DNA of 33,845 bases from Saprospiraceae bacterium (lineage in GTDB: Bacteria; Bacteroidota; Bacteroidia; Chitinophagales; Saprospiraceae). Position numbers and translations under genes: made by a program. Below are positions 13,687 through 31,681 of this stretch, one piece after another. The notes under the pieces were generated by a model. The model did not search any database. It saw nothing but the letters and a program-made list of their open reading frames with translations, and was not told where the DNA came from. The DNA is taken from positions 1 to 33,845 of the forward strand of contig JAHDDF010000006.1 of the NCBI GenBank assembly GCA_020629475.1, read 5' to 3'. Numbering within the stretch: position 1 is the first letter of the stretch; each line of letters begins with the position of its first letter.

Positions 13687-13702
13687 TGTTTCACGTGAAA
13701 CC
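13687..13702. other. parS-like site 1 (15/16 match)
   Basis: TGTTTCACGTGAAACC differs only in its last base from the ParB-binding parS consensus TGTTTCACGTGAAACA. It lies just upstream of the probable ATG (13710) of the DUF6702 gene. ParB loaded here would organise and segregate the origin region; parB itself is not in the window. Confidence 0.8.
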
Positions 13703-21146: not shown

Positions 21147-22550
21147 TTATTTATAATATCCCAATATATTCATCATGTCCTCTACCTTTTGACTTGAATA
21201 TTCAAGCTTATATTTTAATTCCCCATCCTTTTCTTTTATTGTAATATGAGCCGGCGACGGAATCAAACAATGTTTCAAACCTCCATACCCGGATATATTA
21301 TCTTGATATGCACCGGTATGGAAAAAACCTAGGTACAATGGGGTTTTTGCATCCTTTCTAACCTTGGGTAAAAACAGTTGACTAATATGTGCTTCCGAAT
21401 TATAATAGTCGGAATTATCACAAGTAATACCTCCGATATTTACACGGGTAACTTCATTATTCCATTTATTTAATGGCAATAATAAAAAGCGTTGATCAAT
21501 TCCCCAGGTGTCCGGAAGCGTCGTCATTAATGAATTATTAATCATATACCAAAGCTCCGAATCATTTTGCTGTTTGGAACCAATAACCGAAAATAAAACA
21601 GCGCCACTTTCCCCTACGGTAAAGGTCCCGAATTCCGTATAAATATTAGGAACGGGAATATTATTCTCATCACATGCCTCCTTGATGATTCTGATCATTT
21701 CCCCAATCATGTAGGAATAATCATAATTAAAACCAAGGGATTGCTGTACGGGTAAACCGCCTCCTATATTTAATGAATTTAATGTAGGGCAAATGGATTT
21801 TAATTTGGTATATAATTTAATGCTACGTTTAAATCCATTCCAAAAATAAATGCTATCACGGATTCCTGCATCCATAAAAAAGTGAAGCATTTTTAATTCG
21901 AACTTTGGATTGTCTTTGATCTTATCCCTATAAAAGGAGAGAATTTGATCCCGACGCATTCCTAAGCGAGAAGTATAAAACTGGAATTTAGGTTCCTCTT
22001 CCGTAGCGGCACGAATTCCTAATTCGCATTTTTCACCATCAAAATTTTGCGCCAAATAATCAAACTCGGAAGCATTATCCAAAACAGGCACTACCCTATT
22101 GTAGCCCTTGTGCATTAATTCCAGAATTTTCTCCAGATACCCTTGCGGCTTAAAGCCATTGCAAATGATAATCTTATCCTTGGGAATTTTTCCGTTTTGC
22201 CAAAGGTGTTTAATAATATCAATATCAAACGCGGAAGATATCTCAAGATGCACGTCATGCTGAAGGACTTCCTCTAAAACAAAACTAAAATGTGAACTTT
22301 TGGTACAATAGCAATATTGATAATTACCATCATAAACGTATTGCGCCATAGCGTCCCGGAACAATTCCTTCGCCTTATTTATTTGTTTTCCGATAGACGG
22401 CAAATAAGTAATGCGCAATGGAGAACCATACTCCTCCAACAATGCCACCAAATCAATTCCATGGTAGCGCAATGAATCATCTTGTAAACCAAAGCCCCTC
22501 TGCGGGAAGTCAAAGGTTTGTTCAATAAGATTCAGATAGGTATTCTTCAT
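21147..22550 (-). CDS. speA: Biosynthetic arginine decarboxylase, Bacteroidota type
   Basis: A 467-residue fold-type III PLP decarboxylase that makes agmatine from arginine for polyamine synthesis. YQYCYCTKSSHFSF carries the PLP-binding Lys84, and EISSAFDIDI, ICNGFKPQGY and LNIGGGLPVQQSLGFNYDYS are further conserved blocks. It is shorter than E. coli SpeA (over 600 residues), but this length is the usual Bacteroidota form. It is the last gene of a minus-strand run, 51 bp after the M50 protease gene. Related diaminopimelate or ornithine decarboxylases differ in the first block, so the call is fairly firm. Confidence 0.86.
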   Translation of the reverse strand: MKNTYLNLIEQTFDFPQRGFGLQDDSLRYHGIDLVALLEEYGSPLRITYLPSIGKQINKAKELFRDAMAQYVYDGNYQYCYCTKSSHFSFVLEEVLQHDVHLEISSAFDIDIIKHLWQNGKIPKDKIIICNGFKPQGYLEKILELMHKGYNRVVPVLDNASEFDYLAQNFDGEKCELGIRAATEEEPKFQFYTSRLGMRRDQILSFYRDKIKDNPKFELKMLHFFMDAGIRDSIYFWNGFKRSIKLYTKLKSICPTLNSLNIGGGLPVQQSLGFNYDYSYMIGEMIRIIKEACDENNIPVPNIYTEFGTFTVGESGAVLFSVIGSKQQNDSELWYMINNSLMTTLPDTWGIDQRFLLLPLNKWNNEVTRVNIGGITCDNSDYYNSEAHISQLFLPKVRKDAKTPLYLGFFHTGAYQDNISGYGGLKHCLIPSPAHITIKEKDGELKYKLEYSSQKVEDMMNILGYYK

Positions 22551-22601
22551 CCAAGAAAATTAAGAATGCAATTTTCAGAATTTTCTCGAATTAGTAAATA
22601 C

Positions 22602-23744
22602 TTAGCTTCTTAATTTTTTCCTGAATTTCAAAAATTCAAAGACGCTGTCGGAATCAATTAACCCGATGCTTTTGTCTTCCATCAAAACGGGAAGCATTCC
22701 AAGTTCCGAATTCCTCATATTGGTGATGACCTTATCCAAGGAAATATCAGGTGTGAGATAAATAAAATCACGGCGTACAAATATCTCAATATCATTTCCA
22801 ACACCTGAATTAGGGGTATTAAACCAACGTGCCAATTCATTTTCCGTAAGGATTCCGCTTAATTTTCCTTCATTATCAAAAACGGCAAAATTACGCTCGA
22901 AGCCCCTATCCATCAATTCCTTGACCTCGGTTCGGGTACTGAATGAATTCAAGGGTGTATAATTGGTTTTTACTACTTCCGCAAGAGTAAATTGTTTACG
23001 GAAAGTCTCTTCACGGGTTACCCGTAATTCTTGCCCGGACATAATAAATATAAATGCGGCTAGAATCGCGAGTACCCACTGCCCCGTAAAATATGCAACG
23101 CCAAACAATAGAATCACGAACATCTGTGCCACGAAAGTAGCAATACGCGTAGCGGTAAGTTTATCCGTAAAAATACTCAGTCCGGCACGGAACATCCTTC
23201 CCCCGTCCATAGGCAAGGCCGGTACTAAATTAAATACTACCAAAACCAAATTGATAATGAAAAGAATAGCCATTCCCAATTCAAAACGCGCGGCATTTTC
23301 CAGGCCCGGAAGGTTGGCTTTTCCTTGGAGGGCATCAGTTAATCCGGTGGAAATTTGCTCAACCGTAGTAGGGGCAAAAACCAATAGGTATCCTGCCAAA
23401 AAAATACAAATCACAAGATTCACCAATGGACCGGCTGCCGCTACCCAAAATTCACGGGTCGGGGCTTCGGGCATTTGCCGGATCCTTGCTACGCCAAATA
23501 AAGGGGAAAGAATAATATCATCCGTTTTTATCCCGAAACGTTTCGCCATTACAGCATGGCCCAACTCATGGAGAATCACGCATACGGTAAGCAGAATAAA
23601 AAGAATACTAAAGAAAATGATGGCATCCGTCCCCAAACCATCTTGCGTCCATATCATGTAAACCGCCGGTAACACTAGGATATAGGTCCAGTGCAACTTG
23701 ATCGGAATCCCGAAAATCCGGGCTATTTGAATGGCTCTTCCCAT
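22602..23744 (-). CDS. Site-2 protease (M50) with CBS domains
   Basis: A 380-residue membrane metalloprotease. HELGH at 59-63 supplies two zinc ligands, and NLVPALPMDGGRMF (about 172-185, Asp180) the third. Transmembrane helices surround both motifs (about 21-35, 45-63, 100-127, 155-175, 200-240). Residues about 270-378 form a CBS pair that could sense adenine nucleotides, as in the SpoIVFB-like rhomboid-free M50 group. It may cut a membrane-bound regulator; no anti-sigma target is in the window. It is 79 bp after mazG and 51 bp before speA. Confidence 0.9.
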   Translation of the reverse strand: MGRAIQIARIFGIPIKLHWTYILVLPAVYMIWTQDGLGTDAIIFFSILFILLTVCVILHELGHAVMAKRFGIKTDDIILSPLFGVARIRQMPEAPTREFWVAAAGPLVNLVICIFLAGYLLVFAPTTVEQISTGLTDALQGKANLPGLENAARFELGMAILFIINLVLVVFNLVPALPMDGGRMFRAGLSIFTDKLTATRIATFVAQMFVILLFGVAYFTGQWVLAILAAFIFIMSGQELRVTREETFRKQFTLAEVVKTNYTPLNSFSTRTEVKELMDRGFERNFAVFDNEGKLSGILTENELARWFNTPNSGVGNDIEIFVRRDFIYLTPDISLDKVITNMRNSELGMLPVLMEDKSIGLIDSDSVFEFLKFRKKLRS

Positions 23745-23823
23745 GAATGAGATTTAGAGGAATAACGCTAAGGAAAAGATAATTGTTACCGAGGTATCCT
23801 TTAGTGCTTGTTGAATAGATGCC

Positions 23824-24162
23824 TTATTTCAATTTTTGGTTGTTCGCGTGCCTTTCCTTGTCCCGCTTCGTTTTTTTATCCAAGCTTTTTTTCAAGGCAT
23901 CCGTGAGATCAATTCCCGTTTGGTTCGCCAAGCAAATCAAAACAAAAAGCACGTCAGCCATTTCCGCACCTAAATCATCCATGGCGGAATCTTCCTGCTC
24001 CTTGGTTTTGAAGGATTGTTCACCATAAATCCTAGCCATTAATCGTGCCACCTCCCCTACTTCTTCAGTAAGGATAGCCGTGTTGGTCAATTCATTATAG
24101 TATCGGATACCAACGGAATTGATCCATTCATCTACTATTTTCTGTGCCTCTTTAATCGTCAT
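23824..24162 (-). CDS. MazG-like nucleotide pyrophosphohydrolase
   Basis: A 112-residue all-alpha NTP pyrophosphohydrolase of the MazG/dUTPase superfamily. The metal-binding set is visible as LTEEVGEVARLM (Glu33, Glu34, Glu37) and DLGAEMADVLFVLICLAN (Glu and Asp of ExxD), which hydrolyses non-canonical NTPs to NMP and pyrophosphate. It is a single-domain form, not full-length MazG. Its start codon overlaps the dtd stop by one base (TAATG), so the two are translationally coupled; both are house-cleaning enzymes. Confidence 0.88.
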   Translation of the reverse strand: MTIKEAQKIVDEWINSVGIRYYNELTNTAILTEEVGEVARLMARIYGEQSFKTKEQEDSAMDDLGAEMADVLFVLICLANQTGIDLTDALKKSLDKKTKRDKERHANNQKLK

Positions 24163-24614
24163 TATTCCTTGTTTTTACTGTCCATCCAAATCGTGACGGG
24201 ACCATCGTTCATCAAACGCACTTTCATATCCGCACCAAAGGAACCCGTCCCGACCTTCTTACCAATCGTAAACTCCAATGATTTCACGAATTGTTCATAC
24301 AAAGGGATTGCTACATCCGGTTTTGCCGCTTTGATATAGCTCGGTCTGTTCCCCTTCTTTGTTGAGGCATGCAAGGTAAATTGGCTCACTACGATAATAT
24401 CACCATCTACATCCATAACGGATTTATTCATGACTCCGTTTTCATCATTGAATATCCTTAGGTTCGCGATTTTCCGGCAAAGCCATTCTATATCCTCTTT
24501 TCCGTCCTCATTTTCTATTCCCAATAAAACAAGCAAACCATTTTCAATCTCGGAAATGATTTCACCGTCTACCGTTACGGAGGCACTACCCGTTCTTTGA
24601 ATCAATACACGCAT
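24162..24614 (-). CDS. dtd: D-aminoacyl-tRNA deacylase
   Basis: A 150-residue DTD that hydrolyses D-amino acids from tRNA and so protects translation. The SQFTLHAST motif at about 77-85 and the NDGPVTIWMDS motif with the Gly-cis-Pro loop are the active-site signatures, and GSFGADMKVRL is also conserved. The length is standard. It lies 56 bp after the SRAP gene and overlaps mazG by one base. Confidence 0.95.
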   Translation of the reverse strand: MRVLIQRTGSASVTVDGEIISEIENGLLVLLGIENEDGKEDIEWLCRKIANLRIFNDENGVMNKSVMDVDGDIIVVSQFTLHASTKKGNRPSYIKAAKPDVAIPLYEQFVKSLEFTIGKKVGTGSFGADMKVRLMNDGPVTIWMDSKNKE

Positions 24615-24670
24615 GATGTAGCATTATTAAGGAGGAAAGATAAAACCTCTTTCTTCATAAAATTACAATC

Positions 24671-25330
24671 TCAAAACAAAGTAGGTTGTTCAGGCAATTC
24701 TCGATGAAGTTCCGGGTAATTGTTCGTCCGTTTATTTACGGCATTTGACACCTTATATATATGTAGGCTATCATCAGGGAGTGGACGCATGAGTTCGGAA
24801 ATGCGGGAAGCAGGAATATTTTCCAGCCATTCCATTTGATCATCTCCTTGTAATAAAACCGGTGCACGGTTATGGACGGTACTCATTTCAGCATTGGGTT
24901 CCGTAGTAAGAATTACGCAAGATTGGAGCAACATTCCCCCTTCAACTTTCTCCTTGTAAATGCCACCAAAAACCAAGGGTTCTTCTTGATTTTTCCACAG
25001 GATACGGTAAGGCATTTTATCCTTTCCTTCCCGTTTCCATTCATAAAATGAATCAGCGATGATCAAACATCGTCGAGGTAAAATATCATACTTAAAAGAT
25101 GCTTTTTCAAAAACGGTTTCGCTTCTGGCGTTGATCAATAGTTTTCCGGAACCATAAGCAGGAAATCCCCAAGTCATCAATCCCAATTGTTTTTTACCTT
25201 GGGCTACACCATGAACGGCTTGGGTAGGACAAACATTGTAACTAATAATGGGCTCAAAATTAATTTCAATATCAGGAAGCTTCTTCTTCAAGCCTTCCTT
25301 TTTAAAAGAAAAAGACATCCTACCGCACAT
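24671..25330 (-). CDS. SRAP domain protein (YedK/HMCES family)
   Basis: A 219-residue SOS-response-associated peptidase-like protein. Cys2 in MCGRMSF is the catalytic residue that becomes N-terminal after Met removal and forms a thiazolidine link to abasic sites in single-stranded DNA. INARSET, IIADSFYEWK (the Glu) and TVHNRAPVLL (the His) complete the active site. Length is standard. It lies 7 bp after the hydrolase gene. It is a DNA-damage protein in the same window as a disrupted recA, and no LexA box was identified. Confidence 0.93.
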   Translation of the reverse strand: MCGRMSFSFKKEGLKKKLPDIEINFEPIISYNVCPTQAVHGVAQGKKQLGLMTWGFPAYGSGKLLINARSETVFEKASFKYDILPRRCLIIADSFYEWKREGKDKMPYRILWKNQEEPLVFGGIYKEKVEGGMLLQSCVILTTEPNAEMSTVHNRAPVLLQGDDQMEWLENIPASRISELMRPLPDDSLHIYKVSNAVNKRTNNYPELHRELPEQPTLF

Positions 25331-25337
25331 GGTGATC

Positions 25338-26282
25338 TTAATTAAAGAATGTCGAAATCAATTTAGCCACATCTTCCGGTTTTTCCTCCGCAATAAAGTG
25401 ATGGGTTCCCGGAACAATGTGTTTGTTCTCCGCTGAAACCCCGAAGCTCTCAGCAATATTATCCATAATTTTATCGGCAGGAAGAAAAGGATCATCCTCA
25501 CCCCAAACCAAGGAAACCGGAATTCCCGAAGCCTTCATATAAGAATGATAGGTTTCCAAATTTTTAAGCGTATTGTCAAAATCGGTAAAGAAGGCATAAA
25601 TTGCTTTGTTTCCTCCTTCACGCATGGGTGTCCAATATGCTAATTTCTCTTCCTTGGAAAACTTCATTTTCCCGCTTCCCTTCTTCAATGTATTCCCCAT
25701 TATCATCTTTCCCGGAAAACGAGTCTTATATCGAGACAAAATAAATTTGCCCCAAGCCTTATCCTTTTTGAAATTCACCGGCGGTTCAAATCCCTTACCG
25801 ATGGTATTCAAAACCGTCATTCTTTTAATGGATTTTGGATGCTTTCCGATCAACTCCCAAGTCCATAATCCACCGGCATCATGAAGTACGTGATTCCATT
25901 CTTTGATTCCGAGATGATCCATTAATCCCTTCAGTCTTTCGGCATGTCTTGCCGGTGAATATATTTCGTATCCTTCCGGTTTATCACTTCCGCCATAGCC
26001 CAACATATCAGGCATGATAACGCGGTAACCTTCCGCAACTAAAATCCGGGCGACCTTTCGGTACATAAAAGATGATGTGGGAACACCATGCAATAAAAGA
26101 ATCGGTTCACCTTTACCTATATCTATGTAGGCAATCTTTCCGTCCGCATGGTCAAAGTACTTTTGAAAGGAGCGATGCTCCGAAAGATTTTCCGCTTTGT
26201 ACATGGATTCATTTTGACCGGTTAAGGCAGGGCAAGCTGCCAATAGTGTGAATAACACTAGGAAAATACGTGATTTCAACAT
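25338..26282 (-). CDS. Exported alpha/beta hydrolase, haloalkane dehalogenase-like
   Basis: A 314-residue alpha/beta hydrolase with a signal peptide or lipoprotein signal (LLAACPALTGQ; possible lipobox Cys17). HGVPTSSFMYR carries the oxyanion His-Gly (65-66). The nucleophile elbow is HDAGG with Asp135, as in the haloalkane dehalogenase and epoxide hydrolase group, not Ser. WGEDDPFLP gives the acid and GTHHFI the histidine. Substrate cannot be told from the sequence. It is the first gene of a compact minus-strand run and borders the putative origin. Confidence 0.82.
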   Translation of the reverse strand: MLKSRIFLVLFTLLAACPALTGQNESMYKAENLSEHRSFQKYFDHADGKIAYIDIGKGEPILLLHGVPTSSFMYRKVARILVAEGYRVIMPDMLGYGGSDKPEGYEIYSPARHAERLKGLMDHLGIKEWNHVLHDAGGLWTWELIGKHPKSIKRMTVLNTIGKGFEPPVNFKKDKAWGKFILSRYKTRFPGKMIMGNTLKKGSGKMKFSKEEKLAYWTPMREGGNKAIYAFFTDFDNTLKNLETYHSYMKASGIPVSLVWGEDDPFLPADKIMDNIAESFGVSAENKHIVPGTHHFIAEEKPEDVAKLISTFFN

Positions 26283-26985
26283 GGTTTATATAAAGTATAA
26301 GCTGTAATGCAATAGCACGACAATATCCAAACCGGAAACGATATTTAGGATAAGATGTTTGTTAATGATCAATGATTCCGGTTTACCAACACCGGAATAT
26401 ATTTACCAACGGGATTCCAAAACAAATCCGTGCATACGTGGATAATTGCTTCTCCACAAAATACTTTAAATTAATTTACATATAATTAATTACTAGCAAC
26501 TTATGTCGTGGATTTACTAACATTAAATATGTGGAGGAATGTCCGGAAACCTACACGTTTCCCACAGCATTCCACAAAAGAAACTAAGGAAAAGCAAGTC
26601 AACATATCCATACTGCTAATTTTGGTGGATATCCACTATCGTTTTCCACGATAAAAAAGACTTACCGGTTTTCCCCATTAAAAAAGTTACCGGGTTAGTA
26701 GTTTTTCCACAGGCTGTTGATAACCCTGTTAATTACTCTCTTTCAGCACTTTTTGATGTTAACTTTCCGGTAGGATAAAAACGTGGATTGTTCAAACCGG
26801 CTTTACAAAAGAAATTTCCCGTTTTCTTTCCACGAACTAACACTACTGATGATAAGAGGCTTTTTTAAAATTTAAAAACATTCTTAATTATCATAGATCA
26901 TTATAGAGAGCGTGTTGGAGAAAACAAAATGATTTTGTTTTCCTTGATCTTTGTGTTGTATCCGGAATTGAATTATCTAAGTTGA
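26283..26985. other. oriC: Putative chromosomal replication origin (oriC)
   Basis: A 703-bp AT-rich gap. Between 26437 and 26835 there are roughly ten TCCAC(A/G) motifs on both strands. The ones closest to the DnaA box TTATCCACA, with one mismatch each, are TTATCCACG (minus, 26437-26445), TTCTCCACA (26450-26458), TTTTCCACA (26703-26711) and the facing TGTTGATAA (26715-26723). Other elements are the palindrome GTGGATATCCAC (26625-26636), ATTCCGGT-8-ACCGGAAT (26375-26398), the direct repeat TTTACCAAC (26382 and 26402), and AT-only tracts at 26464-26493 and 26864-26890 that could be unwinding elements. Genes diverge from it and parS sites lie 12 kb away. Confidence 0.65.
26920..26942. repeat. 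23-bp palindrome upstream of ctaA
   Basis: GAAAACAAAAT and ATTTTGTTTTC form a perfect 11-bp inverted repeat around a single G. It lies 44 bp upstream of the ctaA ATG. It could be a regulatory operator for ctaA or part of the origin's right flank. Confidence 0.45.
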
Positions 26986-28110
26986 ATGAGTATGGGAATT
27001 TTAAATAATATTGAACTACAGGACAAGGGACGGAAAATTGTATCCGCTTGGTTATTGGTGGGGATGATACTTGTTCTTGGACAAATCGTTGTCGGCGGCA
27101 TAACCCGTTTAACGGATTCCGGTTTATCCATTACGGAATGGGAGGTAGTAAAAGGAACCCTGCCGCCACTAAACACGGATGACTGGAATATCGCCTTCGA
27201 GAAATACAAGGAGGGCGCCAAGCATCAATACGAGATTAAGAACCCGGATATGACGCTTGGGGAATTTAAGGTTATCTATTTCTGGGAATGGTTTCATCGC
27301 TTTTGGGCGCGTTCCATGGGGCTTATATTTTTCTTCCCGTTTATGTATTTCCTTTTTCGTGGGTATTTCTCCAAGAAAATACTGCTTAGATTGGGCATTG
27401 TCATCCTTTTAGCCGCCTCGGCGGCAATAATGGGGTGGTTGATGGTGGATAGCGGCATACAAAACACCCAAAGCGAGCTGGAGTCCGAGATATTGCGTAC
27501 ACGGGTTAGTGCCTATAGGCTTATTGCTCACTTGACCATTGCTACCCTTCTCTTTGGTTATTTATGGTGGACTTATTTATTGCAACGTTTTCCTGAAAGA
27601 CCGTTGAAAAACATGTTGAAAACCCGAAGACTAGCTTTTTGGGTAGGAGGCGTTCTAGTTTTACAAATTCTCCTTGGTGGATTAATGGCAGGAACAAAAG
27701 CAGGGCTGGTTCATCCACATTTTCCGTTTTTTGTTGAGGGAGATCAATTGTATCATCAATTGTTGAATAATAAGCAGATAGGTGTGGATAACTTTGTTGA
27801 TTATGAGAAGTATACTACTCCGCAAGCATGGATTCAAGTATTCCATAGAGGTACAGCTTATTTGCTGACAATCATGATTTTAGTGTTATTTTTTAGAATT
27901 AGGAAGGAGAATCCAAGTGAAAGATTATCCAAAGGGAATGTAGTGTTAGTAATTTTGTTAGGAATCCAGTTTTTCCTAGGAGTCATTACCGTTCTGAATT
28001 CAATAGGCTCTATTCCTGTTGTTTACGGTGTATTACATCAAGCTTTTGCCTTGATTCTTTTTGGTGCCTTACTTTATGTGACATATTGGCTGCGAAAGCC
28101 GAATTATTAA
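26986..28110 (+). CDS. ctaA: Heme A synthase (COX15/CtaA)
   Basis: A 374-residue integral membrane protein with about eight transmembrane helices. It oxidises heme O to heme A for aa3-type cytochrome oxidases. Four expected heme-binding or structural histidines are visible: His104 (EWFHRFWARS), His182 (RLIAHLT), His287 (VFHRGTAYLL) and His351 (VLHQAFAL). The GGITRLTDSGLSITEW motif at about 38-52 is typical of the COX15 type. No oxidase subunit genes are adjacent; it stands alone between the origin candidate and recX. Confidence 0.94.
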   Translation: MSMGILNNIELQDKGRKIVSAWLLVGMILVLGQIVVGGITRLTDSGLSITEWEVVKGTLPPLNTDDWNIAFEKYKEGAKHQYEIKNPDMTLGEFKVIYFWEWFHRFWARSMGLIFFFPFMYFLFRGYFSKKILLRLGIVILLAASAAIMGWLMVDSGIQNTQSELESEILRTRVSAYRLIAHLTIATLLFGYLWWTYLLQRFPERPLKNMLKTRRLAFWVGGVLVLQILLGGLMAGTKAGLVHPHFPFFVEGDQLYHQLLNNKQIGVDNFVDYEKYTTPQAWIQVFHRGTAYLLTIMILVLFFRIRKENPSERLSKGNVVLVILLGIQFFLGVITVLNSIGSIPVVYGVLHQAFALILFGALLYVTYWLRKPNY

Positions 28111-28114
28111 CAAT

Positions 28115-28256
28115 TGTGGAAAAACTTGTTAATAAGATCACCGGATTATGAATTATCCGCAAATGAATCATTCGTAAAGCACTGAACGTCTGTTATTGAC
28201 TAAGTGTTAGTATTATCGGATAAAGGATATTCCTGAAATTGCCCCATTGTGGAAAA
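28115..28256. other. Second group of DnaA-box-like motifs after ctaA
   Basis: In the 138-bp ctaA-recX gap there are TGTGGAAAA (28115-28123), TTATCCGCA (28153-28161), TTATCGGATAA (28213-28223) and TGTGGAAAA (28248-28256, overlapping the recX start). The first, second and fourth are one base from TTATCCACA or its complement. They could form a second DnaA-binding patch flanking ctaA, or simply echo the main cluster. Confidence 0.4.
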
Positions 28257-28731
28257 GAAAAATAAGAAAGGATACGTAGGTAAAACTACCGCCTTGGAGA
28301 AATTGCAGCGCTATTGTGCTTATCAGGATCGTTGCCACAAGGAAGTACGTTCCAAGCTTCTGGATCTAGGAATGTATGGTGACGATCTTGAGGACATTAT
28401 AGTATCCCTGATTCAAGATGATTTTTTAAATGAGGAACGTTTCGCACGTAGTTATGCCCGAGGCAAGTTTAGGATGAAGAAATGGGGAAGAGTAAAAATT
28501 ACAAGGGAGCTTAAGTTCAGGAATATCTCACCTTATTGTTTAAAGAAAGGATTATCCGAAATTAATGAAGAGGAATACCTGGGGGTTTTGATGGAGCTTC
28601 TTGTGAAAAAAAGCGGGAGTTTGAGAGAAAAAGACCGGTATAAGAAAAGAAAAAAGCTCTTTGATTACGCTTTAAATAAGGGATTTGAGACAGAATTGAT
28701 ACGAATTTGCTTAAAGGACTTGACAGATTAG
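28249..28731 (+). CDS. recX: Regulatory protein RecX
   Basis: A 160-residue all-helical RecX that binds and caps RecA filaments. The block DDFLNEERFARSYARGKFRMKKWG is the family signature, followed by VKITRELKFRNIS. The start is GTG at 28249. The length is normal. recA lies 1.9 kb away on the opposite strand beyond rpoN rather than directly adjacent as in many bacteria; recA here is frame-disrupted, so the partner relationship is worth checking. Confidence 0.9.
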   Translation: MEKKNKKGYVGKTTALEKLQRYCAYQDRCHKEVRSKLLDLGMYGDDLEDIIVSLIQDDFLNEERFARSYARGKFRMKKWGRVKITRELKFRNISPYCLKKGLSEINEEEYLGVLMELLVKKSGSLREKDRYKKRKKLFDYALNKGFETELIRICLKDLTD

Positions 28732-28894
28732 AATGAAGTGCATATATTTATGGCATGGTTTTTGATGTTAGAGCGAAATTTTTAAATATCTGATTAATTT
28801 TTAATTCTTTTTTAACTGTTAATCAGTGTGGAATTAGCCCAACTATCCATCTTATACCAAGAACACCATTTTACAGATTGTTTTTACATCGTCA

Positions 28895-28930
28895 CGTTAC
28901 ACTAAAAAGTATCAAAACTTCATTGTAACG
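28895..28930. promoter_or_regulatory. Inverted repeat upstream of rpoN
   Basis: CGTTACA (28895-28901) and TGTAACG (28924-28930) are perfect complements 22 nt apart, ending 17 bp before the rpoN ATG. They could form an operator dyad or a leader hairpin. The rest of the 216-bp recX-rpoN gap is AT-rich without a clear promoter. Confidence 0.3.
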
Positions 28931-28947
28931 CTATCAAATTCCGCGCC

Positions 28948-30513
28948 ATGATCAAACAGGTACAGAAAACTGCAATCATACAGAAACTCTCCCCGCAGCA
29001 GATTCAACTCATGAAGTTGTTGCAGATTCCTACGGCTACTTTGGAGCAAAGAATCAAGGAGGAGTTAGAGGCTAATCCTGCCTTGGAGGAAAGTGAGGAA
29101 GGGGAAAACTCCCTCTCGGAATCCTCATCTGATGATCTCAGGGATGACGAACGTTTCATGAAAGGGGAAAAGGAGTCCAAGGAGGACGGTGAACCCGCTC
29201 CTGACGAATTCGAGGCACCCAAGGATGATTCCATTGAGTTGGATGAATACATCAACGACTATCTGGAGGATGATGTGGCATCCTATAAGCTAAACATTAA
29301 TAATTACTCCCCCGACGACGAGGATAAGACCATGCCCATGGCGGTAGAAAATACCTTCCATGAACATTTGATTCGTCAATTGGGGCTACTGCGTTTGAAT
29401 GATGAGCGTGAAATCACAATCGCAAAGCAAGTAGTAGGTAGTATTGATGATGATGGCTACCTCCGTCGTGAACCCATTTCCATAGTGGATGATCTAATGT
29501 TCGGGCAAAATATTTTTGCTACCGAAGAGGAAATCATGGCAATGATTAAAAAGGTGCAAACCTTTGATCCCCCGGGTGTAGGGGCTAGAAATCTTCAAGA
29601 GGCCTTGGTTTTGCAATTAGAAAGAAAAAATGACTCCGAGGTGTTCACTTTTGAGGAAAAAGCGCCCATTCGTTTAGCGCTTCGTATACTTTCCGAGCAT
29701 TTCAACGAATTCAGCAAGAAACATTATGCCCGTCTTCAACGCCAACTAAACATCAACGAGCGTCAGCTTAAACGAGCGATTGAAGCAATCCTAAAATTAA
29801 ATCCTAAGCCCGCTAGTGGTTATTCTTCCGGAAGCAATTCCCGTGCGGTGCATTATATCGTTCCCGATTTTACCATTACCAATCGTGACGGTGAACTAGA
29901 TCTGGAACTTAATTCCCGCAATGCTCCCGATCTTAGGATCAATGATCACTACAAGGATATGCTTACGTCCTACCAAGGAAACAAGAAAATGGGTAGACGT
30001 ACGGATAAGAAGCAGAAGGATGCCGTGATGTTCATCAAGCAAAAAATAGATTCCGCAAAGTGGTTCATTGATGCCATCAAGCAGCGTCAGGCAACCATGT
30101 ATAAAACCATGTACGCCATCCTTCAGTTGCAATATGACTTTTTCCTTACCGGGGATCAACGTAAACTACGACCGATGATCTTAAAGGATATCGCGGAAAT
30201 GACGGGCTTGGATATCTCCACCGTTTCCCGTGTGGCAAATTCCAAGTATGTTCAAACGGAATTCGGGACCAAGCGTTTGAAGGATTTCTTCTCGGAATCC
30301 CTACAAACCAAATCCGGAGAGGAGGTATCCACTTTGGAGGTGAAAAAGATCCTTACGGATATTATTGCCAATGAAAACAAGCGCAAGCCGCTTTCCGATG
30401 AAAAACTCAAGGAGTTATTAACGGAGCGTGGTTACAACATCGCCCGTAGAACCGTGGCAAAGTACAGGGAGCAATTGAATGTTCCCGTAGCAAGACTAAG
30501 AAAAGAGTTATAA
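28948..30513 (+). CDS. rpoN: RNA polymerase sigma-54 factor
   Basis: A 521-residue sigma-54. The N-terminal activator-contact region is Gln/Leu-rich (KLSPQQIQLMKLLQIPTATLEQRI, ELEANPALEE), followed by an acidic linker (about 50-120), the core-binding domain, a helix-turn-helix near 405-425 (DISTVSRVANSKYVQTEFG) and the intact RpoN box ARRTVAKYRE at 499-508. It lets the cell use -24/-12 promoters with enhancer-binding activators, which are not present here. It ends at a strong terminator. Confidence 0.97.
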   Translation: MIKQVQKTAIIQKLSPQQIQLMKLLQIPTATLEQRIKEELEANPALEESEEGENSLSESSSDDLRDDERFMKGEKESKEDGEPAPDEFEAPKDDSIELDEYINDYLEDDVASYKLNINNYSPDDEDKTMPMAVENTFHEHLIRQLGLLRLNDEREITIAKQVVGSIDDDGYLRREPISIVDDLMFGQNIFATEEEIMAMIKKVQTFDPPGVGARNLQEALVLQLERKNDSEVFTFEEKAPIRLALRILSEHFNEFSKKHYARLQRQLNINERQLKRAIEAILKLNPKPASGYSSGSNSRAVHYIVPDFTITNRDGELDLELNSRNAPDLRINDHYKDMLTSYQGNKKMGRRTDKKQKDAVMFIKQKIDSAKWFIDAIKQRQATMYKTMYAILQLQYDFFLTGDQRKLRPMILKDIAEMTGLDISTVSRVANSKYVQTEFGTKRLKDFFSESLQTKSGEEVSTLEVKKILTDIIANENKRKPLSDEKLKELLTERGYNIARRTVAKYREQLNVPVARLRKEL

Positions 30514-30583: not shown

Positions 30584-30618
30584 GAAAGCTTGATTAAGCT
30601 TTCATCTATTAGAAAGGA

Positions 30619-31681
30619 TTATGCTTTAGCAGTCTCTGTCGTTTCCTTGGTTTTTCCTTGGACTTCCTCCAAGGAGATACCTTTTACTTTCGCAATGATT
30701 TTTTGCTCTACCTCAAGGGCGACTTCCGGATTGTCACGGAAGAAGTTTTTCGCCGCTTCGCGGCCTTGGGCAATCTTGGCGTCATCATAAGCGTACCAAG
30801 CACCGGATTTTTTCACCACTTCGTATTGTACACCCAAATCAACGATTTCACCCGTCTTAGAGATCACCGTACATGATGTCAAATTCCGCAATACGGAATG
30901 GAGGGGCTAGTTTGTTTTTCACTACTTTCACCTTTACGTGGTTACCCACTACATTTCCTTCCTTATCCTTGATAGCGGAACCGGAACGGCGAATATCCAA
31001 ACGCTGGGAAGCGTAGAATTTAAGAGCGTTACCACCGGTGGTAGTCTCGGGATTACCGAACATTACACCGATTTTCTCACGCAATTGGTTGATGAAAATA
31101 CAGCAAGTATTATGCGCACCAATGGTACCCGTAAGTTTACGAAGCGCTTGGGACATCAAACGAGCTTGAAGACCCATTTTGGACTCACCCATTTCACCTT
31201 CTAATTCCGCACGAGGAACCAATGCCGCAACGGAGTCAATCACCAAAATATCGATAGCACCGGAACGGATTAGGTGTTCCGCGATTTCAAGTGCTTGCTC
31301 ACCGTAACTGGGTTGCGCAATAAGAAGCTCGTCGGTATTAACACCTAAAGCTTCCGCGTAGGTACGATCGAATGCGTGCTCAGCATCAATAAAAGCGGCA
31401 ATACCACCGTCCTTTTGTGCCTCGGCAATGGCATGGATAGCCAAAGTTGTTTTACCGGAGGATTCAGGACCGTAAATTTCAACTACACGTCCCCTGGCAA
31501 AACCACCTATCCCCAAAGCGAGGTTTAAGGTTAAGGAGCCGGTTGATATTTTATCGGACTCGACCACTTGCTTGTCGCCGAGCTTCATTACCGTACCTTT
31601 TCCGTAGGTACGATCTAGTTTTTCTACCGTGAGCTGTAAAGCCTTGAGTTTAGCGCTTTGCTCTTTTGATTCTTTTGCCAT
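30619..31681 (-). pseudogene. recA: recA, split by a net 5-nt deletion (RecA recombinase)
   Basis: The first frame (31681 to 30857, 274 aa) is a normal RecA core: Walker [26 protein letters not shown] and the [19 protein letters not shown] loops are all intact. It then stops at DIMYGD-L-stop where the family continues YGEGISK. The expected continuation [21 protein letters not shown] lies in the +1 frame from 30864 and stays open to 30619 (TAA), giving the missing C-terminal domain of about 80 residues. About two residues (Glu-Gly) are missing at the junction, so 5 nt are missing, not one homopolymer base. It may be a true frameshift, an assembly error or, less likely, programmed frameshifting. 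As drawn, the core lacks its C-terminal domain. Confidence 0.85.

What the first reader, a model, noticed from the sequence alone, without database searches (positions are those of the whole stretch)
26283..26985. Probable chromosome origin with dense DnaA-box-like motifs
Roughly ten TCCAC(A/G) cores lie within 400 bp on both strands, where fewer than one would be expected by my rough base-composition estimate. Four are one base from TTATCCACA, including the facing pair at 26703-26723. AT-only tracts, a long inverted repeat and a direct repeat accompany them. Genes to the right (ctaA, recX, rpoN) run away from it, the run to the left faces the other way, and parS sites are 12 kb off.
Basis: partly seen in the sequence, partly recalled or inferred. 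Interest (0 to 1): 0.75.

Follow-up and report, generated by a model that had tools for sequence, protein, structure and literature searches.

The report
Saprospiraceae chromosome replication origin (oriC)
This stretch beside the ctaA gene is almost certainly where this Saprospiraceae bacterium starts copying its chromosome. It carries a DNA-opening signal found at the same place in about a hundred related genomes, far from the dnaA gene where deposited genomes usually place their start.

Summary
The 703-bp gap carries 11 TCCAC cores (shuffles 0.98; 0 of 2000 reach 11) and four boxes one base from TTATCCACA. Flanking genes diverge, and three parS-like sites lie 12-13 kb away.

The origin reading is strongly supported. 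The window's cumulative GC skew is lowest at base 26846, and third-codon skew changes sign there on both gene strands. In a same-genus relative (583-kb contig) all 16 samples left of this locus are negative and all 3 right are positive. Closed or near-closed relatives G087 and G195 switch skew at the same locus, with dnaA 1.5-2.4 Mb away. parS lies 6-32 kb from the locus in ten genomes, with no chromosomal site near dnaA.

Not noticed before: the unwinding module is at 26826-26878 (tandem DnaA boxes, spacer, DnaA-trios, AT tract). It aligns without gaps across 60 related loci, is single-copy, and lies 29-622 bp upstream of ctaA in 113 of 114 genomes. It stays at this locus in genomes lacking ctaA, so it is not a ctaA regulator.

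Verdict: an ordinary but well-resolved oriC, a new member of a known kind. That Bacteroidetes oriC lies far from dnaA was already reported. DnaA binding and initiation remain inferred.

The parts
26283..26985 (.). intergenic oriC region between the divergent abhydrolase gene and ctaA
   Evidence: ORF table; 11 TCCAC cores; cumulative GC-skew minimum of the window at 26846
26437..26458 (.). left DnaA-box pair: TTATCCACG (26437-26445, -) and TTCTCCACA (26450-26458, +)
   Evidence: each one mismatch from TTATCCACA
26556..26576 (+). conserved box block GTTTCCCACAGCATTCCACAA
   Evidence: alignment with same-genus G008 (GTTTTCCACAGCTTTCCACAC)
26622..26650 (.). conserved palindromic box pair plus third box: TTGGTGGATATCCACTATCGTTTTCCACG
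   Evidence: alignment; the block is nearly identical in G008
26703..26723 (.). facing pair TTTTCCACA-GGC-TGTTGATAA
26826..26834 (+). unwinding module, DnaA box 1 (CTTTCCACG; family consensus TTnTCCAC)
   Evidence: ungapped 60-locus alignment
26834..26842 (+). unwinding module, divergent box 2 (GAACTAACA; TTATCCACA in some relatives)
   Evidence: its A-C columns invariant in 57 of 57 distinct sequences
26843..26854 (+). DnaA-trio run CTA CTG ATG ATA (complementary strand 3'-GAT GAC TAC TAT-5')
   Evidence: the middle T of the first in-register trio is conserved in 56 of 57, of the second in 53 of 57
26860..26909 (.). AT-rich unwinding tract (CTTTTTTAAAATTTAAAAAC...)
   Evidence: fifth least stable separate 50-bp stretch of the window by nearest-neighbour energy
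26923..26955 (+). conserved block AACAAAATGATTTTGTTTTCCTTGATCTTTGTG, probable ctaA promoter (Bacteroidota -33/-7 type), not part of the origin core
   Evidence: alignment; promoter reading is inference from the known Bacteroidota consensus
26986..28110 (+). ctaA (COX15/CtaA haem A synthase), right-hand neighbour and synteny anchor
   Evidence: PF02628, 6.5e-82
28249..30513 (+). recX and rpoN, transcribed away from the origin
21147..26282 (-). left-hand gene run transcribed away from the origin (abhydrolase, SRAP, dtd, mazG, M50-CBS, decarboxylase)
   Evidence: mazG-dtd keeps this place in relatives that lack ctaA
13687..14637 (.). three parS-like sites at 13687, 14258 and 14622
   Evidence: chance 0.10 per window at up to 2 mismatches; the only three in the genome at up to 1 mismatch

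Best explanation
The interval is the chromosomal replication origin, oriC. DnaA loads on the dispersed boxes (26437-26834). From the right-hand boxes it extends as a filament onto the DnaA-trio strand at 26843-26854. It melts the AT tract at about 26860-26909, and helicases are loaded so that two forks leave, one through ctaA-recX-rpoN and one through the leftward gene run. Shown here: the site cluster, the skew switch, parS proximity, single copy, and deep conservation of the module and its place. Inferred from studied origins: DnaA binding, melting and helicase loading. dnaA itself lies elsewhere.
For: Box cluster far above chance. Cumulative GC-skew minimum at 26846; third-codon skew negative left and positive right on both gene strands. 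Same-genus G006: 16/16 samples left negative, 3/3 right positive, turning in the 2-kb bins beside ctaA. G195: 10/10 negative on one side, 10/10 positive on the other, switch between 6.06 and 6.15 Mb with the module at 6.094 Mb. G087: 9/10 and 8/10, switch between 2.27 and 2.43 Mb with the module at 2.349 Mb. parS within 6-32 kb of the module in ten genomes, and no chromosomal parS site near dnaA. Unwinding module aligned without gaps in 60 loci; hits in 153 of 198 family genomes; 113 of 114 placed directly upstream of ctaA; retained without ctaA; single significant hit in the own genome, 1.9e-11 against 0.12 for the next.
Against: The assembly has 870 contigs, so whole-genome skew and read depth could not be tested in this organism itself. 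Skew is too weak to judge in G084 and G134. The AT tract is not uniquely unstable within the window.
Confidence: 0.96

Rival explanations
1. The boxes and conserved module are a DnaA-dependent promoter or regulator of ctaA (or of the abhydrolase gene), not an origin.
For: In 113 of 114 genomes the module lies just upstream of ctaA on the same strand, and a promoter-like block follows it.
Against: In G072, G078, G154, G089 and G065, where no ctaA was found, the module remains at the same locus beside mazG-dtd. It is absent upstream of ctaA in 50 Flavobacterium loci. It coincides with skew reversal and parS. In other Bacteroidia it sits beside unrelated genes.
Confidence: 0.02
2. A DnaA-titration or reactivation site (datA- or DARS-like) rather than the origin.
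For: Dense boxes alone could serve titration.
Against: Titration sites need no trio or AT tract, do not mark the skew minimum and are not single family-wide loci with parS.
Confidence: 0.01
3. An origin of an integrated element or of a second replicon.
For: The contig is 33.8 kb and not joined to dnaA.
Against: Flanks are ordinary chromosomal genes (thrB, thrC, nadK, dtd, recX, rpoN, recA), and much of their order is shared with the 583-kb contig of G006. In G087 the whole genome is one contig with the module in it.
Confidence: 0.01

Closest known systems
DnaA-dependent bacterial oriC, as in Bacteroidetes (e.g. Prevotella intermedia OMA14, PMC4755523)
   Same: Box cluster in an intergenic region at the skew switch, dnaA not nearby; that paper states Bacteroidetes oriC is commonly far from dnaA
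   Different: Different neighbours (ctaA/recX/rpoN and mazG/dtd); here located by a conserved unwinding module as well
Basal unwinding system (BUS) of Bacillus subtilis and other bacteria (PMC6669920, PMC8287927, PMC10721633)
   Same: Tandem DnaA boxes, short spacer (GC-rich in many relatives), repeated trios with conserved middle A, AT tract, same order and polarity; in G151: TTATCCACTTATCCACA-GCC-CTAATGATAATAA
   Different: In the window's genus both boxes have drifted (CTTTCCACG, GAACTAACA) and the GC spacer is CTA; not tested biochemically
Helicobacter pylori oriC2 unwinding element (PMC8235120)
   Same: Boxes, GC-rich spacer, trio, AT tract
   Different: H. pylori origin is bipartite; unrelated sequence

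Membership tests
Bacterial chromosomal oriC (DnaA-dependent) | Cluster of DnaA boxes in an intergenic region, above chance | tested here: met
   11 TCCAC cores against 0.98; 0 of 2000 shuffles
Bacterial chromosomal oriC (DnaA-dependent) | GC-skew sign switch at the site | tested here: met
   window minimum 26846; relatives G006, G195, G087; own whole genome not testable (870 contigs)
Bacterial chromosomal oriC (DnaA-dependent) | One copy per chromosome | tested here: met
Bacterial chromosomal oriC (DnaA-dependent) | parS close to the origin (usual companion) | tested here: met
   12-13 kb in the window; 6-32 kb in nine relatives
Bacterial chromosomal oriC (DnaA-dependent) | DnaA binding, replication start (footprint, marker frequency) | not testable with these tools
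   no reads, no protein
Basal unwinding system (BUS) | DnaA box with at most 2 mismatches (published search rule) | tested here: not met
   window boxes 3 and 5 mismatches; 28 of 57 distinct homologues meet the box and trio rule together
Basal unwinding system (BUS) | At least three trios (3'-NAN-5') within 16 bp of the box | tested here: met
   CTG ATG ATA in register 11 bp after box 1; CTA precedes them
Basal unwinding system (BUS) | AT-rich tract after the trios | tested here: met
   26860-26909
Basal unwinding system (BUS) | DnaA-dependent strand separation needing boxes and trios | not testable with these tools
   needs purified DnaA

The most novel reading that the evidence does not exclude
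A homologous 57-bp unwinding module marks oriC across much of the class Bacteroidia while the genes around it differ by family (mazG-dtd/ctaA here, ppiD/nadA, an acyl-CoA synthetase, metK elsewhere). This would mean the origin core keeps its sequence while its neighbourhood is replaced, and in some lineages box 2 has become a TAACA-type site matched by a changed DnaA.
Probability: 0.4. Interest if true: 0.6.

Novelty: new member of a known kind. Interest (0 to 1): 0.45.

Why it matters
Origins in Bacteroidota are hard to place because dnaA is no guide. Closed Saprospiraceae chromosomes in the collection mostly start at dnaA, 1.2-3.8 Mb from where the evidence puts the origin. The 57-bp module gives a sequence-only marker that places oriC even in fragmented metagenome assemblies. 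It would help growth-rate estimates from read depth for these bacteria and offers a natural series of diverged unwinding modules for testing what DnaA needs.

Tried and rejected
Skew in G084 and G134 was too weak to use. TCCAC density alone was misleading: G006 has no dense cluster upstream of ctaA although skew and module are there. Repeat structure led nowhere. A ctaA-regulator reading was rejected because the module persists without ctaA. Literature searches for a described Saprospiraceae oriC found none in the open library; DoriC itself could not be consulted and may hold predictions.

Full report
What was checked. The window is contig C573 (33,845 bp) of a 4.94-Mb, 870-contig genome; dnaA is on another contig, C266. 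Nearest named relatives are Saprospiraceae metagenome genomes. The interval 26283-26985 is a 703-bp gap, 34% G+C, between an abhydrolase gene on the minus strand and ctaA on the plus strand.

Observation. Eleven TCCAC cores lie between 26438 and 26833. Shuffled copies of the gap give 0.98 on average, and none of 2000 reaches 11. Of the letter permutations of TCCAC, the next most frequent occurs 3 times. Four boxes are one base from TTATCCACA. The divergent gene runs and the parS-like sites are real.

Skew in the window. The cumulative GC-skew minimum of the whole 33.8-kb window falls on base 26846. Gene direction does not explain it. At third codon positions, genes left of the site have negative skew whichever strand they are on (-0.17, -0.05), and genes right of it have positive skew on both strands (+0.14, +0.11).

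Skew in relatives. In the same-genus genome G006 the ctaA locus lies on a 583-kb contig. All 16 samples left of it are negative and all three to the right are positive, and the 2-kb bins turn from -0.10 to +0.21 at ctaA. In G195, 20 samples round the 7.58-Mb chromosome split 10 negative and 10 positive; one switch lies between 6.06 and 6.15 Mb, and the ctaA locus is at 6.095 Mb. In the single-contig 7.5-Mb G087 the split is 9 of 10 negative and 8 of 10 positive, with the switch between 2.27 and 2.43 Mb and ctaA at 2.348 Mb. dnaA is at about 0.5 kb in both records. G084 and G134 have too little skew to judge.

parS. With at most one mismatch, the own genome has three parS sites, all in this window. 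In nine relatives, sites lie 6-32 kb from the locus, including G084 and G134 where skew was silent. No chromosomal parS site was found near dnaA; a few stray single-mismatch sites are on other contigs or far away.

The unwinding module. Comparing ctaA upstream regions showed a conserved element at 26826-26878. Sixty loci align without internal gaps. In G151 it reads TTATCCAC-TTATCCACA-GCC-CTA ATG ATA ATA AG, then an AT tract. This is the order described for the basal unwinding system: tandem DnaA boxes, GC-rich spacer, DnaA-trios (3'-GAT-5' consensus, conserved middle A, seen as CTA on the other strand), AT tract (PMC8287927, PMC8235120). Across 57 distinct sequences the middle T of the first trio is kept in 56 and of the second in 53. 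In the window the parts are CTTTCCACG, GAACTAACA, CTA, CTG ATG ATA. The two boxes are 3 and 5 mismatches from consensus, so the window copy itself misses the published box threshold; 28 of 57 homologues meet the box and trio rule. I therefore say that it works like, and is homologous to, such modules, and do not claim strict membership for this copy.

Conservation of place. A sequence-only model of the module (R1) matches 153 of 198 family genomes at E up to 0.01. Note that many of the training sequences came from these genomes. In the own genome the window copy scores 1.9e-11 and the next hit 0.12. Of 114 genomes with both a listed ctaA and a strong hit, 113 have the module 29-622 bp (median 140) upstream of ctaA on the same strand. 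Five genomes in which no ctaA was found (G072, G078, G154, G089, G065) still carry the module at this locus beside mazG-dtd, in two of them followed by the M1 peptidase and thrC. Fifty Flavobacterium ctaA upstream regions have no convincing match.

Beyond the family. In 197 Bacteroidia genomes the model gave 13 with E up to 0.001, 11 of them outside the family. Those inspected sit beside other genes (ppiD-nadA, an acyl-CoA synthetase, nadD/metK), most inside box clusters. parS lies within 1-17 kb in G056, G250, G300, G317, G329, G343, G370 and G315, but not on the same contig in G420, G410 or G390. The G390 hit lies inside a coding frame and is probably chance. Skew there could not be sampled.

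Known or new. That Bacteroidetes origins are commonly far from dnaA is stated in PMC4755523, and PMC10197239 found that the origin does not systematically go with dnaA. No description of a Saprospiraceae origin was found in the open library. The record G202 has exactly the chromosome length published for Saprospira grandis WH-T (4,250,550 bp, PMC10508125); its dnaA is at 0.5 kb and the module at 1.99 Mb.

Conclusion. This is an oriC, with confidence 0.96. The steps of DnaA binding, melting and helicase loading are inferred from other origins. It is a new member of a known kind, useful because the module places origins in fragmented genomes.

Noticed in passing
window 30600-31681 (-): recA reads as 274 aa ending at a stop at about 30858; the usual C-terminal part continues in another frame (30619-30891). 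Frameshift or assembly error; not mended.
   Followed up: partly
L117, L118, L119, L123 (genus g76, Saprospira), about 6.4 kb right of ctaA start: A second, denser TCCAC cluster (22-23 cores in 450 bp) besides the module; possible second DnaA-binding region.
   Followed up: no
Neolewinella-type loci L021, L044, L046, L052, L053, L055-L058, about 300 bp upstream of ctaA: A second tandem box pair of the type TTATCCACATTTCCACAGC without trios, at a nearly fixed distance from the unwinding module.
   Followed up: no
G084, G087, G134, G183, G195, G202 chromosome records: Records begin at dnaA although skew and/or parS and the module put the origin 1.5-3.8 Mb away.
   Followed up: partly
   Followed up: no
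L301, L302, L303, L304, L306, L307, L308: Module homologues in other Bacteroidia families beside nadA/ppiD, an acyl-CoA synthetase gene, or nadD/metK, most with parS nearby.
   Followed up: partly
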